Assembly (NCBI GenBank): GCA_030550675.1 | Contig: JAUQOW010000023.1 | Location: 1 to 32,220, forward strand | Source: Chloroflexota bacterium | GTDB lineage: Bacteria; Chloroflexota; Chloroflexia; Chloroflexales; Roseiflexaceae | Direction of reading: 5' to 3' | DNA length: 32,220 nt | Part shown: positions 2-5,818 of the stretch, piece after piece | Numbering within the stretch: the first letter of the stretch is position 1 | Layout: each line of letters opens with the position of its first letter | The notes under the pieces: model-generated | Databases searched by the model: none | Seen by the model: the letters and a program-made list of their open reading frames with translations, nothing else | Told to the model about the DNA's origin: nothing | Made by a program: the position numbers and the translations under genes

Positions 2-1801
2 CCTCCGCCTCCTCCCCCCAACGCCACGGTTGACGTCTTTATCACCTGCTACAACGAACCGGTGGAGGTTGTGCGCACAACGGCCGTCGCCGCGCGCGAT
101 ATTCGCTACCCGCACCGCACCTACCTGCTCGACGACGGCAACTCGCCAGCGATGCGCGCCATGGCGGAAGAAATCGGCATCGGGTACCTGGTGCGCACCG
201 AAGAGTGGAAGGGAAAGCAACGCCACGCCAAGGCGGGCAACCTGAACAATGCCCTGTGCCAGACGAACGGCGAGTTCATCCTGGTGCTGGACGCCGATCA
301 GATTCCGTCGCCCGACATTCTGGATCGCACGCTGGGCTACTTCGCCGATGAGCGCGTGGCGCTGGTGCAGACGCCGCAGTGGTTCTACAACGTCCCGCCG
401 GACGATCCGCTCGGCAGCCAGGCGCCGCTCTTCTATGGACCGATCATGCAGGGGAAGGACGGCTGGAATGCTGCGTTCTTCTGCGGTTCCAACGCTGTGC
501 TGCGGCGTGAAGCGCTCATGCAGATCGGCATCGCCAACTACGTGCGCGACCTGGAATTGCGCGTGCAGCGCGCCCTGCGCACCGCCGACGCCATCCTGCG
601 TCGCGCCGCCCGACAGGTGCAGGCCCCGGCAAATGGCGCCATTCAGACAGCGATCACTGATCTTCAGGCGGCAGTGCGCACCAGTCGGCGCATGCTGCGC
701 GAAGGACGCCCGATCCAGGAAGTAACCTGGTATTTCCAGCAGCGCGCCGCTGCGGCAGCGCGTCCGCTCGTCATCGAAGACCTGGCGCGCCTGCGCGCAG
801 AGGTGGCAACTATTCCGGGTCTCGATGAGGATGAAGACCTGACCACGAACCTCAGCCGGTCGCTTGATGATGAAACTATCCTGCACGAACTGACGATACG
901 CGAACGCTCACCGCTGGCAGCCATCGCCACCGTGCGCGAACTCCTGCTGGCAGTGGATGTTGACCGCGCCGATGAAGCGCAGCCGGTGATGCCGATGGCG
1001 ACCATCTCCGTCACCGAAGACATGGCGACGGCTATGCGTCTCCACGCAGCAGGATGGCGATCAGTCTACCACGATGAAATCCTGGCGCGCGGGCTGGCGC
1101 CGGAAGACCTGCGCTCGGCGCTTCAGCAGCGCCTCCGCTGGGCGCAGGGCACCATCCAGGTGATGCTGCGGGAAAATCCGCTCTTTGTGCCAGGGTTGCA
1201 GTGGGGGCAGCGCCTGATGTACTTTGCCACCATGTGGAGTTATCTGTCGGGATTCTTCAGCGTCATCTACCTGTCCGCCCCGATTTTGTACCTGATCTTT
1301 GGCATGCTGCCGGTGCGCACGCAAGCGGAAGAGTTCTTCTGGCGGCTCGTTCCGTACCTGCTCACCAACGAACTGGTCTTCGCCATCGCTGGCTGGAAGC
1401 GGGCGACCTGGCGCGGACGCCAGTATAGCCTGGCGCTCTTTCCGCTCTGGATTCAGGCGGTGATCAGCGCCATCGGCAACGTCTACGCCGGACGACCGCT
1501 GGGGTTCGTCGTGACGCCAAAGGTGCGCCAGGGAGGAATGCACATCTGGGGTCAACTGCGCCTGGTGCGCATCCAGGTGATCACGATGGCGCTGCTGACG
1601 CTCTCGGCGGTCTGGGGGCTGACACGCCTGGCGCTCGGCGTGCAGACGGACGGGATTCCAACGCTGGTCAACGTCTTCTGGATCGGGTATGATTTACTTA
1701 TGCTGAGCGTTGTGATCGATGCGGCGCTCTATCAACCGGACGATCAGGAACAGCCAATGGCAGTGGCGACAGCAGTCCAGAGAGTCTCTCAAAAAGCCTG
1801 A
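2..1801 (+). CDS. Cellulose-synthase-like membrane glycosyltransferase (GT2), 5' end cut by window
   Basis: Processive-type family 2 glycosyltransferase that would add sugars from a nucleotide donor to a growing polysaccharide at the inner membrane. The reading frame is open from base 2, so the N-terminus lies outside the window; 599 residues are visible. The core motifs are in order: VFITCYNEP, LLDDGN, VLDADQ (metal-binding DxD), FFCGSNAVLRR, TISVTED (catalytic Asp) and QQRLRWAQG (QxxRW). About five hydrophobic segments follow, and the FVVTPK segment typical of this family lies near the end. No PilZ domain follows QxxRW. Unusually, about 150 charged, Ala/Arg-rich residues (bases ~540-1003) separate the FCGSN and TED motifs, which are normally only some 15-20 residues apart. 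The donor and product cannot be told from sequence. The STAS/anti-sigma genes follow on the same strand. Confidence 0.9.
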   Translation, partial: PPPPPPNATVDVFITCYNEPVEVVRTTAVAARDIRYPHRTYLLDDGNSPAMRAMAEEIGIGYLVRTEEWKGKQRHAKAGNLNNALCQTNGEFILVLDADQIPSPDILDRTLGYFADERVALVQTPQWFYNVPPDDPLGSQAPLFYGPIMQGKDGWNAAFFCGSNAVLRREALMQIGIANYVRDLELRVQRALRTADAILRRAARQVQAPANGAIQTAITDLQAAVRTSRRMLREGRPIQEVTWYFQQRAAAAARPLVIEDLARLRAEVATIPGLDEDEDLTTNLSRSLDDETILHELTIRERSPLAAIATVRELLLAVDVDRADEAQPVMPMATISVTEDMATAMRLHAAGWRSVYHDEILARGLAPEDLRSALQQRLRWAQGTIQVMLRENPLFVPGLQWGQRLMYFATMWSYLSGFFSVIYLSAPILYLIFGMLPVRTQAEEFFWRLVPYLLTNELVFAIAGWKRATWRGRQYSLALFPLWIQAVISAIGNVYAGRPLGFVVTPKVRQGGMHIWGQLRLVRIQVITMALLTLSAVWGLTRLALGVQTDGIPTLVNVFWIGYDLLMLSVVIDAALYQPDDQEQPMAVATAVQRVSQKA

Positions 1802-1908: not shown

Positions 1909-2262
1909 ATGGCACTCCAGAGCGAACCCGGTGATGACGGGATCACCATCGTTCGAATGGACGGTCGCCTCGATCTGCTGGCGGCAGCGGAGGTCAAACA
2001 GCAACTGGCTGAACTGATCGCCAGCGGACACCGACGCTTAATCTTCGATCTGGATCGCGTGAGTTTTGTCGATAGTTCCGGGCTTGGCGCATTAATCAGC
2101 GGGCTGAAGGCAGCGCGGCAGGCGGGCGGCGACCTGCGAATCGCACGCGCCAACCAACAGGTGCGCACGTTGCTCAACCTGACGATGCTGGAGCGGGTCT
2201 TGCGACCTTACGAGACGATCGAGGAGGCGCGCGCTGGCTACTCCCAGATCGCTGCTGATTGA
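1909..2262 (+). CDS. STAS-domain anti-sigma factor antagonist
   Basis: A 117-residue single STAS domain of the SpoIIAA/RsbV type. In this family the unphosphorylated antagonist binds an anti-sigma kinase and frees a sigma factor or another partner. The hallmark DSSGLG loop is at residues 55-60, with Ser56 as the expected phosphorylation site; it is preceded by the usual RLIFDLDRVSFV strand. I chose the ATG at 1909 because AGAGAGGAG lies just upstream and the STAS fold begins immediately; an in-frame start at 1849 would only add a non-conserved leader. Its stop at 2260-2262 runs into the next reading frame, a HATPase protein, which suggests a translationally coupled antagonist/anti-sigma pair. 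The sigma factor is not in the window. Confidence 0.9.
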   Translation: MALQSEPGDDGITIVRMDGRLDLLAAAEVKQQLAELIASGHRRLIFDLDRVSFVDSSGLGALISGLKAARQAGGDLRIARANQQVRTLLNLTMLERVLRPYETIEEARAGYSQIAAD

Positions 2263-2692
2263 AGCATCTATCGCCACGCAGACGCTGAACGAGGGACTGG
2301 ATGCGATCCACGATCTGATCGAACGCTTCTGGAGCAATGCTGCTTCCATCTCTCAATTGCCCTCCGAGTCGTGGCGACACCTCTTTACAACGGCGCTGGC
2401 GGAAGTAGTGGCTAATGGGTTGCGTCATGCCTATCCGCCCGATGCGACCATGCGACCGTTGCATGTGCGGTTGCGCCTTTTTCCTGATCGCATTGAAGCT
2501 CTCCTGATCGATTGGGGCGCGCCTTATCAACCGACATTCTCCGCCGCTGACCCGCCCGATGACGACATTGACATTGCCATGCTGCCGGAAAGCGGGTATG
2601 GGCTGCTCATTGCGCGCTCGTCGCTCGACTCGCTCCGTTACCGCCGCACCCGCAGCGGGTATAACTGCTGGAAGTTGGTCAAGAAAAAGTAG
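2258..2692 (+). CDS. Anti-sigma regulatory factor (HATPase, RsbW-like); start uncertain
   Basis: GHKL-ATPase protein of the RsbW/SpoIIAB kind, expected to phosphorylate the STAS protein encoded just upstream. The N-box is seen in ALAEVVANGLRHAYP, a G1-like D-x-G in LLIDWGAPYQP and the G2 glycines in ESGYGLLIA. The first standard start codon in this frame is TTG at 2357, but that would begin only about 15 residues before the N-box. The frame is open upstream and encodes a stretch (IEASIATQTLNEGLDAIHDL) of the length RsbW proteins carry there. The real start is therefore probably a non-standard codon touching the STAS stop: ATT at 2258, or CTG at 2252 or 2255. From 2258 it is 144 residues. The function is fairly sure; the start is not. 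Confidence 0.75.
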   Translation: MEASIATQTLNEGLDAIHDLIERFWSNAASISQLPSESWRHLFTTALAEVVANGLRHAYPPDATMRPLHVRLRLFPDRIEALLIDWGAPYQPTFSAADPPDDDIDIAMLPESGYGLLIARSSLDSLRYRRTRSGYNCWKLVKKK

Positions 2693-2703
2693 ATGACAGA
2701 GTC

Positions 2704-2732
2704 TTGCTTTACCACACACAGTGGTATATACT
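2704..2732 (+). promoter_or_regulatory. Predicted sigma-70-type promoter
   Basis: TTGCTT at 2704-2709 and TATACT at 2727-2732 are separated by 17 bases, just upstream of the gene that starts at 2790. It would start transcription near 2739 and so separate that gene from the STAS/anti-sigma pair. Confidence 0.6.
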
Positions 2733-2789
2733 TGCGACGGTATGCGTTTGCGCCACCGTCACAATCTTGCACACAAAGGAGGCTGCCAG

Positions 2790-3578
2790 ATGGCTGATAC
2801 GCAGACCCGTCGCGCCACACCCGACCTCCAGTCGTCGAGTACCTCGTCTTCGTCATCCGTTGCGCCGCGCCGACGTTCGACGCCGTTGCTGAGCTGGTCG
2901 CGCAATCAGACGCAGGCGCAGGCGAATAGCAAAAGCCCGCAGCGTGGATCGCGTCTGACGCCATTCTGGAAGGCGTTGATCGTCACGTCATTTATCATCA
3001 ACATCGTGCTCCTGACGGTGGTGCTGTTGCTGGTCGGATTTATCATTCAGTGGCGGCAGCAGATTGTATCGACCGCCCTCCAGGGGCAGGGATTCGCCGC
3101 CGACAATGTCGCCGAGCTGCGCAGCATTGTCGCGGGTCTGCAGGGCGCCACGATCCGCGCGACTATCCCGCTCGATCAACCCCTGCCGCTGAAAGACGCT
3201 GGCGTGATCGTCCCGGTCGACCAGCAAACGACGGTAACGCTGGTCGAACCAGTGCCATTGCAACTGAGCGGCGCCGACATTGATCTCGGCAACGGCAACC
3301 GGCTGCGCGCCAACAATATCCGTCTGACGCTTCCCGCAGGCACGCCGCTGCGGATTGCGCTCAAGATGGATATTCCGCTTGATGATGTCACCATTCCGGT
3401 GCGTCTGAACGTGCCGGTGGAGATTCCGCTCAAGGATACGGAACTCGGTCCGCAATTCCAGCGCCTGGGGTGGCTGGTGGATCGGTTGGTCGGTCCGCTT
3501 GCGCCCGTGCTGGGACTCGACCCGATCCCGCCTGCGCCGCCAGCGCCGCGATATCAGCCATCACAACAACCGCAATGA
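2790..3578 (+). CDS. Membrane-anchored protein of unknown function, one transmembrane helix
   Basis: 262 residues. The start at ATG 2790 follows a strong AAAGGAGG site. Residues 1-60 are Ser/Thr/Arg/Gln-rich and look disordered. One strong hydrophobic helix follows (FWKALIVTSFIINIVLLTVV, roughly 65-95). The rest is a soluble domain of regularly spaced beta-like segments rich in pairs such as IPLDQPLPL, VPLQLSG and DIPLDDVTIPV, ending in a Pro-rich tail. The repeated xPLxD/xVPVxIPL pattern suggests an elongated beta structure outside the membrane. I do not recognise the family. Its stop overlaps the start of the HAD gene (ATGATG), so the two are probably co-translated. Confidence 0.75.
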   Translation: MADTQTRRATPDLQSSSTSSSSSVAPRRRSTPLLSWSRNQTQAQANSKSPQRGSRLTPFWKALIVTSFIINIVLLTVVLLLVGFIIQWRQQIVSTALQGQGFAADNVAELRSIVAGLQGATIRATIPLDQPLPLKDAGVIVPVDQQTTVTLVEPVPLQLSGADIDLGNGNRLRANNIRLTLPAGTPLRIALKMDIPLDDVTIPVRLNVPVEIPLKDTELGPQFQRLGWLVDRLVGPLAPVLGLDPIPPAPPAPRYQPSQQPQ

Positions 3579-4664: not shown

Positions 4665-4751
4665 GGGGTCAGGGGTCAGGGGTTAAAGGTTAGGGGCTAT
4701 GCGTTCAATGAAAGCAATGAATCTTAACTTCTAACCCTTAACCCCTAACCC
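4665..4751. repeat. G-run / GGGGTTA-like repeat tract
   Basis: Four GGGG runs at 4665-4668, 4672-4675, 4679-4682 and 4693-4696 are joined by short TCA/TTA-type linkers. A facing C-rich tract of TAACCC-type units at 4731-4751 runs into the stop of the histidine kinase gene. The two arms are imperfectly complementary, so the DNA could form a hairpin ending the kinase transcript, or a G-quadruplex on the plus strand. Confidence 0.55.
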
Positions 4752-5818
4752 ATAGGCAACGGAATAAGCGCCTCAACGCGCGTGCCGCGCCCGATGGCGC
4801 TTTCAATGCCAAATTCGCCGCGGAGAAGCGTCTCGACCTGCTGGCGCAGCGTGGCGATCCCCATATTGCGCCGTCCGCTTTCGTCGGACAGCACCTCGCT
4901 CACGGAAAATCCGCTGCCGTCATCTTCGACCGACACGTGGATCATGCGCGTTCCGCCAAGATCGTCGCGGACGCTGACCAGCACTCGCGCCTGGGAAGCG
5001 TTGGCGTGCTTGATGACGTTGTTGAGCGCCTCCTGGATGAAGCGGAAGATAGCGACTTCGTAGTGGGAAGGCAGCCGCATATCCAGGTTCTGCACCATCA
5101 GGTTGATCTCGATTTTGTTCTTTTCACTGACCTGCTGCACATAGCGGCGCAGGGTCGGCGCCAGCCCGAGGTCGTCGAGGATCATTGGGCGCAGATCGAA
5201 AATGAAACGACGCGTATCCTGGAGGGTGGTATTAATGGCGTTTTTGAGCGCGCTCAGTTCAGCGCGCGCCATTTCAGGGTCGCGATCGAGCAGCCGCTGG
5301 CAGATTTCGGCGCGCAGCACCAGATTGCTCATCGACTGGGCAGGACCATCGTGCATCTGCAGCGAGATACGCAAACGCTCCTTCTCCTGCGCCTGGATAA
5401 TGTCGGCGATCAACTGGTCGCTTCCCACCATCCCACCGGTGTTGCCAGCAGGCGTGGCGGCGCCAAGGAACGGTTCGAGGGCTGTGACTAGCTCGAACAA
5501 CAGACTCTGACGCTGTTTGGTCGCCTGCTGACGGTACTGGAGTTGCTCCAACTGGCTCCGCATAGTCAGGAGACGCATCTGCACTTCCTGGGCAGAAGCA
5601 TAAAAATTCTTAATATCGGCTTTGCTATACCGATCAATGTTGACATCCAGATCGCGCAGACGGTTCGAGACTGTCAGCTCACGTTGCTGCAACTTTTCGA
5701 CTTCATTTGAGGTCTGCCGCAGGAGCGCCTCAATCTCGTTCAATTCGCGGCGCGCTTTTTCAAGATCGGCGTTGGCTTTATCATAGAGTTCTTTGAGGGA
5801 CGGCGGAGCGTCAGTCAT
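4745..5818 (-). CDS. Soluble DegS-like sensor histidine kinase
   Basis: A 357-residue kinase of the NarL/DegS (HisKA_3) class with no transmembrane segment. Residues ~6-108 are a long coiled coil rich in Leu, Glu, Arg and Gln. A short linker leads to the dimerisation/phosphoacceptor motif ERLRISLQMHDGPAQS with His156. The C-terminal HATPase has an N-box in RFIQEALNNVIKHANAS, a D-x-G-x-G in VEDDGSGF and a second glycine box in MGIATLRQQVE. As in DegS, the signal would be sensed in the cytoplasm through the coiled coil, then passed to a LuxR-type regulator. No response regulator gene is adjacent. The start at ATG 5818 is preceded by GGGAGG, 11 bases away. Confidence 0.9.
   Translation of the reverse strand: MTDAPPSLKELYDKANADLEKARRELNEIEALLRQTSNEVEKLQQRELTVSNRLRDLDVNIDRYSKADIKNFYASAQEVQMRLLTMRSQLEQLQYRQQATKQRQSLLFELVTALEPFLGAATPAGNTGGMVGSDQLIADIIQAQEKERLRISLQMHDGPAQSMSNLVLRAEICQRLLDRDPEMARAELSALKNAINTTLQDTRRFIFDLRPMILDDLGLAPTLRRYVQQVSEKNKIEINLMVQNLDMRLPSHYEVAIFRFIQEALNNVIKHANASQARVLVSVRDDLGGTRMIHVSVEDDGSGFSVSEVLSDESGRRNMGIATLRQQVETLLRGEFGIESAIGRGTRVEALIPLPMG

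What the first reader, a model, noticed from the sequence alone, without database searches (positions are those of the whole stretch)
540..1003. About 150 extra residues inside the catalytic core of a cellulose-synthase-like enzyme
In BcsA-type enzymes the FCGSN..RR segment is followed within a few residues by the TED motif. Here a helical, Arg/Ala/Glu-rich insertion separates them, yet all catalytic motifs remain. The insertion lies beside the acceptor site, so it could change product or bind a regulator, perhaps replacing the missing PilZ domain.
Basis: partly seen in the sequence, partly recalled or inferred. Interest (0 to 1): 0.52.

Follow-up and report, generated by a model that had tools for sequence, protein, structure and literature searches.

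The report
Switch-docking insert in cellulose-type synthase
A cellulose-synthase-like enzyme carries an extra helical domain inside its catalytic core, and nearly every relative with this domain is encoded beside a three-protein phosphorylation switch, which suggests that the domain is where the switch turns polysaccharide synthesis on and off.

Summary
The 5'-truncated gene at 2-1801 encodes a BcsA-type GT2 synthase with 156 extra residues (530-997) between FCGSN..RR and TED; E. coli BcsA has 2 residues there and 38 of 38 uninserted relatives 1-2. It is no artefact: all close homologues examined share it (Chloroflexota and Actinomycetota, one clade, 100/100). AlphaFold2 gives a helical bundle without a recognisable relative.

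The new result is the setting. In 82 of 90 inserted loci the gene lies with SpoIIE phosphatase, STAS (RsbV-type) and HATPase (RsbW-type) genes; 0 of 38 uninserted relatives have SpoIIE or HATPase nearby. Phospho-site and phosphatase motifs are intact, and no sigma factor gene lies on the window's two contigs. PilZ is in 0 of 42 inserted and 20 of 38 uninserted enzymes.

Best reading: the insert is the receiver of a partner-switching module that gates the synthase after translation, the role that c-di-GMP and PilZ have in ordinary BcsA. Docking is inferred, not shown; which protein docks is open (an exploratory distance test favours HATPase). PilZ loss may have preceded insert gain. Seven searches of open literature found no such arrangement.

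The parts
2..1801 (+). BcsA-type GT2 processive synthase, N-terminus missing (contig end); TM helices in the C-terminal part, no PilZ
479..508 (+). FCGSNAVLRR motif (residues 160-169), upstream edge of the insert
530..997 (+). 156-residue helical insert (residues 177-332), clade-specific; conserved T242, V257, D260, R300, SPLxA 303-307, E325-A326, P331
1013..1021 (+). TED motif (residues 338-340), downstream edge of the insert
1127..1141 (+). QRLRW (QxxRW) motif, residues 376-380
1909..2262 (+). STAS-domain protein (RsbV/SpoIIAA type); presumed phospho-serines of DSSGLG at 2074-2079
   Evidence: Pfam PF01740 6.7e-22; DSSGLG conserved in at least 90% of 88 family members; sequence
2252..2692 (+). 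HATPase_c_2 protein (RsbW/SpoIIAB type serine kinase); its frame overlaps the STAS stop, exact start uncertain (no ATG there)
   Evidence: Pfam PF13581 7.6e-13; family alignment starts at residue 30 of frame 2183-2689; sequence

Best explanation
The insert is the receiver domain by which a partner-switching module controls the synthase after translation. SHOWN: (1) a helical domain is built in between two acceptor-site motifs; (2) it is conserved across two phyla; (3) it travels with SpoIIE phosphatase, STAS and HATPase genes, mostly on the same strand; (4) the STAS serines and phosphatase aspartates are intact and the HATPase N box is largely kept; (5) PilZ is absent. INFERRED: under non-inducing conditions the HATPase phosphorylates STAS and is free to clamp the insert, holding the synthase off. 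A signal, read by the REC (Chloroflexota) or GAF (Actinomycetota) part of the SpoIIE protein, leads to dephosphorylation of STAS. STAS then captures the HATPase and the insert is released. Binding would be felt at the active site because the predicted helix 169-205 starts inside the FCGSN..RR segment and runs unbroken into the bundle, while the C-terminal end of the insert runs straight into TED. Whether the HATPase (RsbW-like) or unphosphorylated STAS (SiaC-like) docks is undecided; I favour the HATPase.
For: Neighbourhood: STAS in 87 of 90, HATPase in 87 of 90, SpoIIE in 82 of 90 inserted loci, all three in 82; same strand 84, 83 and 79. Of the 8 without all three, L041 ends inside the gene, L042, L046 and L144 have little or no upstream sequence, L140 and L087 lack only SpoIIE in the flank, and L051 and L061 lack all three nearby; but L051's genome holds an intact SpoIIE-STAS-HATPase block elsewhere (L177) and L061's genome a second inserted synthase with STAS-HATPase (L178). 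An inserted enzyme from an independent draw of Actinomycetota (G548, L193) has all three. Control: 0 of 38 uninserted relatives have SpoIIE or HATPase, 1 of 38 has a lone STAS. Another neighbour turns over (BcsB in 12 of 90) while the module stays. The window's own genome has SpoIIE and BcsB directly upstream on C62. Domains. Motifs. No sigma-70 region 2 on C429 or C62. PilZ. Distances: insert-HATPase partial r 0.35, insert-STAS 0.15, insert-SpoIIE -0.01 (63 loci). Precedent: unphosphorylated SiaC binds a helical stalk of the enzyme SiaD, under phosphatase SiaA and kinase SiaB (PMC8457831 passages).
Against: No interaction was shown or modelled (only single-chain folding was available). All inserted enzymes are one clade, so insert and module were each gained perhaps once and the association may count as one evolutionary event, though long retained. 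The module could act on a sigma factor encoded elsewhere (18 sigma-70 region 2 matches in the genome) and so control transcription. The C-terminal part of the insert, which holds most conserved residues, is modelled with pLDDT mostly under 65 in the full model. HATPases of some Arthrobacter/Kocuria-type loci have lost the G1-box aspartate, so kinase activity may be lost there. Permutation p values of the distance test ignore phylogeny, and the TM region also correlates with the partners (r 0.25-0.41).
Confidence: 0.6

Rival explanations
1. The insert is an assembly domain, like the class-specific region of plant CesA in the same place: it makes synthases oligomerise or contact other secretion parts, while the linked partner switch controls transcription through a sigma factor encoded elsewhere.
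For: The insert lies between FCGSN..RR and TED, as the plant CSR does (position recalled; PMC8306620 passages, say CSR lies in the central cytoplasmic domain, is helical and disordered, and is implicated in CesA interactions). The core matches CesA structures at Z 20-21. A helical bundle is a common assembly module.
Against: The insert tracks the switch genes in two phyla and is missing where they are missing. BcsB, the natural assembly partner, is found in only 12 of 90 loci. No sigma gene lies on the window's two contigs.
Confidence: 0.22
2. The unphosphorylated STAS protein itself docks on the insert and activates the enzyme (SiaC-SiaD style), with HATPase and SpoIIE acting only as its kinase and phosphatase. 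This is a sub-variant of the receiver-domain reading, not exclusive of it.
For: SiaC binds a helical stalk of SiaD through contacts to several Arg residues, and phosphorylation prevents it (PMC8457831 passages); STAS conservation is high (DSSGLG); other non-canonical STAS proteins act on unknown targets (PMC8256260 passages).
Against: The residual distance correlation of the insert with STAS (0.15) is weaker than with HATPase (0.35) (exploratory).
Confidence: 0.3
3. The insert changes substrate or product (for example a mixed-linkage or mannose-containing glucan) and has no regulatory role.
For: It lies between acceptor-site motifs; a GH26-family hydrolase gene is near one inserted gene (L094:2540-3523, Pfam 5.8e-15).
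Against: All core catalytic motifs are unchanged; the insert is the least conserved part of the enzyme (mean column entropy 1.78 against 0.57-0.72 for the GT core and 1.10 for the TM part), unlike a substrate-contacting segment.
Confidence: 0.08
4. Artefact: a frameshift, assembly error or chance translation.
For: The gene is cut at a contig end.
Against: Same insert, in frame, in close homologues from many species; exact overlap with the neighbouring contig.
Confidence: 0.01

Closest known systems
BcsA (UDP-forming cellulose synthase, Rhodobacter/E. coli type)
   Same: GT2 core, catalytic motifs, TM channel; VIA-align Z 29.7 to 4p00 (rmsd 2.6, 413 aligned); BcsB encoded next to it in Roseiflexus- and Chloroflexus-type loci
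   Different: 156-residue insert; no PilZ; TIGR03030 score 334 against cut-off 699; partner-switch genes in the locus
Partner-switching modules of the SpoIIA/Rsb type
   Same: SpoIIE-type phosphatase with sensor domain, STAS with conserved serines, HATPase_c_2
   Different: No sigma factor gene on the window's two contigs; the constant extra member of the locus is a membrane synthase
Non-canonical partner switches tied to polysaccharide (SypA/SypE of Vibrio fischeri, HmpUVW of Nostoc)
   Same: STAS output linked to polysaccharide or biofilm, target unknown (PMC8256260 passages)
   Different: Those loci were not examined here; whether they have an inserted synthase was not tested
SiaABCD of Pseudomonas aeruginosa
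   Same: A small protein under a phosphatase/kinase pair binds a helical part of an enzyme to control it (PMC8457831 passages)
   Different: SiaD is a diguanylate cyclase; here the presumed target is the synthase itself
Plant CesA class-specific region (CSR)
   Same: Extra domain at the same place of the GT core (position recalled), helical in part
   Different: No sequence or fold match of the insert to it was seen; no partner switch in plants (recalled)

Membership tests
BcsA equivalog (TIGR03030) | Score over the curated cut-off (699.1 bits) | tested here: not met
   334 bits in two stretches; N-terminus missing in the window
BcsA-type GT2 synthase (wider family) | Catalytic motifs D, DxD, FCGS, TED, QxxRW and BcsA fold | tested here: met
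   Invariant columns in 42 sequences; Z 29.7 to 4p00
BcsA-type GT2 synthase (c-di-GMP regulated) | C-terminal PilZ domain | tested here: not met
   0 of 42 inserted proteins; only 8-56 aa after residue 575 in the 82 rows measured
BcsA-BcsB synthase complex | BcsB gene in the operon | tested here: met
   BcsB on contig C62 upstream of the window's gene; but in only 12 of 90 inserted loci
Partner-switching module | STAS protein with phosphorylatable serine | tested here: met
   PF01740; DSSGLG in at least 90% of 88
Partner-switching module | GHKL serine kinase (HATPase_c_2) with N, G1 and G2 boxes | tested here: inconclusive
   PF13581 over cut-off; N-box Glu/Asn and G2 box conserved; G1 Asp present in the window protein but absent in some Arthrobacter/Kocuria-type ones
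Partner-switching module | PP2C-type SpoIIE phosphatase | tested here: met
   PF07228 in 7 of 7 candidate proteins scanned; GD, DxMGKG, DAGH, SDG, DD motifs conserved in 84; own genome on C62
Classical sigma/anti-sigma partner switch | Target sigma factor encoded with the module | tested here: not met
   No PF04542 match on C429 or C62 among 18 in the genome
Partner-switching module | Phosphorylation-dependent binding among the proteins and to the target | not testable with these tools
   Needs wet experiments or complex prediction
Plant CesA class-specific region | Homology to the CSR | tested here: inconclusive
   No CesA among profile hits of the insert at E up to 10; fold search of the insert gave no match under E 0.09

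The most novel reading that the evidence does not exclude
A class of cellulose-synthase-family enzymes in Chloroflexota and Actinomycetota has built a docking domain for an RsbW/RsbV-type partner switch into its catalytic core, so a phospho-switch that elsewhere frees sigma factors gates a membrane polysaccharide synthase directly, in the regulatory place of c-di-GMP and PilZ. It would also name a physical target for a non-canonical partner switch, a class whose outputs are mostly unknown.
Probability: 0.5. Interest if true: 0.85.

Novelty: new variant of a known kind. Interest (0 to 1): 0.7.

Why it matters
BcsA-type synthases are textbook targets of c-di-GMP acting through PilZ. Here a large PilZ-less clade carries a dedicated domain next to the active site and a conserved phospho-switch. 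If the link is direct, it would be a second way to gate a processive polysaccharide synthase, would give a testable target for partner switches with unknown output (STAS proteins such as SypA, RbaV and HmpV, per PMC8256260), and would bear on polysaccharide control in mat-forming phototrophs (Roseiflexus, Chloroflexus) and in many soil actinobacteria.

Tried and rejected
Known domain for the insert: Pfam gave only a sub-threshold PIN_5 hit (E 0.046, 13.6 bits against 27). A profile search of PDB sequences gave only chance-level helical proteins, best E 0.02. Foldseek with the insert model gave nothing below E 0.09, and VIA-align's best Z was 10.8, under the roughly 13 that helical bundles can reach by chance. 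Insert as a mobile or free-standing domain: the profile found it clearly only in this synthase, 11 hits in 301 Chloroflexota genomes and 2 (one the seed genome) in 296 genomes of the Actinomycetota draw; five and one further hits had E 0.001-0.01 and were not followed up.

Clean one-step swap of PilZ for the insert: not supported. The tree put the PilZ-bearing clade next to the inserted clade (84/81), but with six BcsA-type outgroups the inserted clade groups with PilZ-less uninserted enzymes (100/98). That run used 25 of the 35 inserted rows, 18 of the 21 PilZ-bearing rows (L156, L201, L207 left out as long branches) and 11 of the 17 others. Own-built PilZ model: 21 of 21 of the large uninserted clade and 0 of 17 others; L160's best stretch there was only 17 residues, so Pfam's 20 of 38 is the safer count. 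The same model matched only 3 of the 6 plasmid enzymes (L212, L214, L216), so it is not very sensitive.

My GH26 model was built from one seed and iterated. It matched large frames in which Pfam sees no GH26, so I use only the Pfam hit in L094. First gene calls by longest frame were misled by high GC and were replaced by profile searches of stop-to-stop frames. The 90 inserted loci are 80 plus 10; possible duplicates between the two sets were not removed. One search returned only the best 80 of 229 relatives, and its search patterns were partly taken from the insert itself, which biases that set towards inserted enzymes; the uninserted set comes from searches without that bias. Of the 38 uninserted loci, 35 have at least 1200 bases of downstream flank and several have almost no upstream flank, so their SpoIIE absence is weaker evidence than their STAS/HATPase absence.

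Literature: seven searches found no paper that describes this insert or a partner switch acting on a cellulose synthase; only open-licence full texts were searched, and most hits were seen only in the search listing. PMC7727763 (passages) names a Chloroflexus BcsB among hypothetical proteins and nothing more. PMC7444824 (passages) concerns a Burkholderia SpoIIE-HATPase protein that affects c-di-GMP and bcsB expression, a different arrangement.

Full report
What is there. The window begins at a contig end (G000:C429) inside a gene whose open frame runs 2-1801 on the + strand (599 aa). Pfam, NCBIfam and PDB comparisons place it in the BcsA/cellulose synthase part of GT2 (Cellulose_synt 1.8e-25; TIGR03030 CelA 334 bits against a cut-off of 699; best PDB sequences are E. 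coli BcsA, 8.5e-57). In the alignment with E. coli BcsA, residues 176 and 333 of the window protein are separated by only two BcsA residues, so residues 177-332 (530-997) are extra.

The rest of the gene. The missing N-terminus is on contig C62, whose end overlaps the window start by exactly 127 bases. Directly upstream there, on the same strand, are BcsB and a SpoIIE-type phosphatase. The Roseiflexus locus L040 shows the same order unbroken: a PAS-histidine kinase, a REC-SpoIIE protein, BcsB, the synthase, STAS, HATPase. The window itself carries STAS (1909-2262, PF01740) and HATPase_c_2 (about 2252-2692, PF13581) right after the synthase.

Conservation of the insert. Homologues from Roseiflexus, Chloroflexus-type genomes, other Chloroflexota and many Actinomycetota keep it. 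In an alignment of 88 sequences the insert is the least conserved segment (11 of 156 columns at 95% or more, against 87 of 169 before it and 37 of 68 just after), but it has an invariant or nearly invariant set: T242, V257, D260, R300, S303-P304-L305-x-A307, E325-A326, P331. Most of these lie in its last third, just before TED. Eleven distant homologues compared with the window protein are 28-51% identical in the insert against 71-77% in the first half of the core.

Origin. In a maximum-likelihood tree of the core with the insert left out, 35 inserted and 38 uninserted enzymes separate on one branch (100/100). Uninserted relatives have 1-2 residues at this place (38 of 38), as do six plasmid-borne BcsA/CelA-type enzymes (2 residues, 6 of 6). 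A single gain is the simplest reading. The insert profile finds it nowhere else in 301 Chloroflexota genomes or in 296 genomes drawn round an Actinomycetota genome, apart from hits with E 0.001-0.01.

Structure. AlphaFold2 with 42 homologues folds the core as BcsA (Z 29.7 to 4p00, rmsd 2.6, 413 aligned). A helix that starts at residue 169, at the end of the FCGSN..RR segment, runs unbroken to 205 and leads two more long helices (212-233, 238-268); 277-302 and 322-335 are below pLDDT 50. Folded alone, the segment gives three long and three short helices, mean pLDDT 82.9, pTM 0.71. Its fold matches are no better than chance for helical bundles. The most conserved third is the least confidently folded part, as a segment that orders on binding a partner might be (inference).

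Neighbourhood, the main new result. I built profile models of the three switch proteins from these loci and searched stop-to-stop frames. Among 90 inserted loci, STAS is found in 87, HATPase in 87, SpoIIE in 82, all three in 82, mostly on the synthase's strand (84, 83, 79). Pfam confirms SpoIIE with REC (L040, L045, L043), GAF (L094, L100, L068) or CHASE and PAS (L099) sensor parts. In Mycolicibacterium L094 the called genes overlap by four bases (SpoIIE-synthase and synthase-STAS), which suggests translational coupling (coordinates). Of the loci without all three, several are cut by contig ends. The two real exceptions, L051 and L061, are telling. L051's genome has an intact SpoIIE-STAS-HATPase block elsewhere, and L061's has a second inserted synthase followed by STAS and HATPase. 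An independently drawn Actinomycetota genome with the insert (G548) has all three. Among 38 uninserted relatives from the same two phyla none has SpoIIE or HATPase in the flank and one (L207) has a lone STAS on the other strand.

The switch looks functional. The STAS family keeps DSSGLG in at least 90% of 88 members; the SpoIIE family keeps the metal-binding aspartate motifs; the HATPase family keeps the N-box Glu and Asn and the G2 box, but not the G1 aspartate in some actinobacteria. No sigma-70 region 2 lies on C429 or C62, while 18 lie elsewhere in the genome.

PilZ. Pfam finds PilZ in 20 of 38 uninserted proteins and 0 of 42 inserted ones. The inserted frames end 8-56 residues after position 575 in the 82 rows measured. 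The window's genome has no PilZ match but eight GGDEF matches, seven over the cut-off. With BcsA as outgroup the inserted clade groups with PilZ-less uninserted enzymes, so loss of PilZ probably came first and the insert with its switch later; an earlier tree without BcsA differs, so polarity is unsure.

Which partner docks? In 63 dereplicated loci, residual evolutionary distances of the insert correlate with the HATPase (r 0.35 after removing core, TM and STAS), less with STAS (0.15 after core, TM and HATPase) and not with SpoIIE (-0.01). The SpoIIE result is a useful internal control, but permutation p values ignore phylogeny and the TM region also correlates, so this is only a hint that the HATPase is the contact, as RsbW is for sigma factors.

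Mechanism proposed and rivals. Best reading: HATPase clamps the insert and holds the enzyme off; SpoIIE, on signal, dephosphorylates STAS, which takes the HATPase away. The sign (clamp inhibits) is carried over from the known Rsb/SpoIIA systems and is not shown here. A close rival is direct STAS docking, as unphosphorylated SiaC binds the helical stalk of the enzyme SiaD (PMC8457831 passages). Further rivals are an assembly domain like plant CSR, with the switch acting on a sigma factor elsewhere, and a product-specificity role.

Known and new. A 2021 review of STAS-only proteins describes several partner switches with unknown targets, among them SypA, RbaV and HmpV (PMC8256260 passages). Seven full-text searches gave no description of this insert or of a partner switch acting on a cellulose synthase; only open-licence papers were searched. 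I therefore rate it a new variant of known kinds (BcsA-type synthase, partner switch), with the combination and the built-in domain being new as far as I could find.

Noticed in passing
L164:4953-9608, L166:4989-9188, L167:4940-8284: Uninserted synthases in very long frames (1,115-1,552 aa) with an extra region that my own GH26-like model matches but Pfam does not name.
   Followed up: partly
L100:5621-7483: STAS and HATPase matches lie in one open frame in Microbacterium ureisolvens, a possible fused antagonist-kinase.
   Followed up: no
L072 and L087, HATPase proteins: The HATPase of these Arthrobacter/Kocuria loci has lost the G1-box aspartate, so it may bind without phosphorylating.
   Followed up: partly
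L177:6037-8035: A complete SpoIIE-STAS-HATPase block without a synthase beside it, in the genome of L051 (Arthrobacter agilis), whose inserted synthase lies elsewhere.
   Followed up: yes
L094:2540-3523: A GH26-family hydrolase gene directly upstream of the SpoIIE gene; a hint to the polymer made or trimmed.
   Followed up: no
window 4745-5818 (-): DegS-like histidine kinase (HisKA_3, HATPase) on the opposite strand, not part of the conserved module.
   Followed up: no
window 2721-3578 (+): 285-aa protein with one long hydrophobic stretch and no Pfam match, downstream of the HATPase; seen in only two of the loci.
   Followed up: no
L207:10018-10617: A lone STAS gene about 2.4 kb from an uninserted, PilZ-bearing synthase, on the opposite strand.
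   Followed up: no
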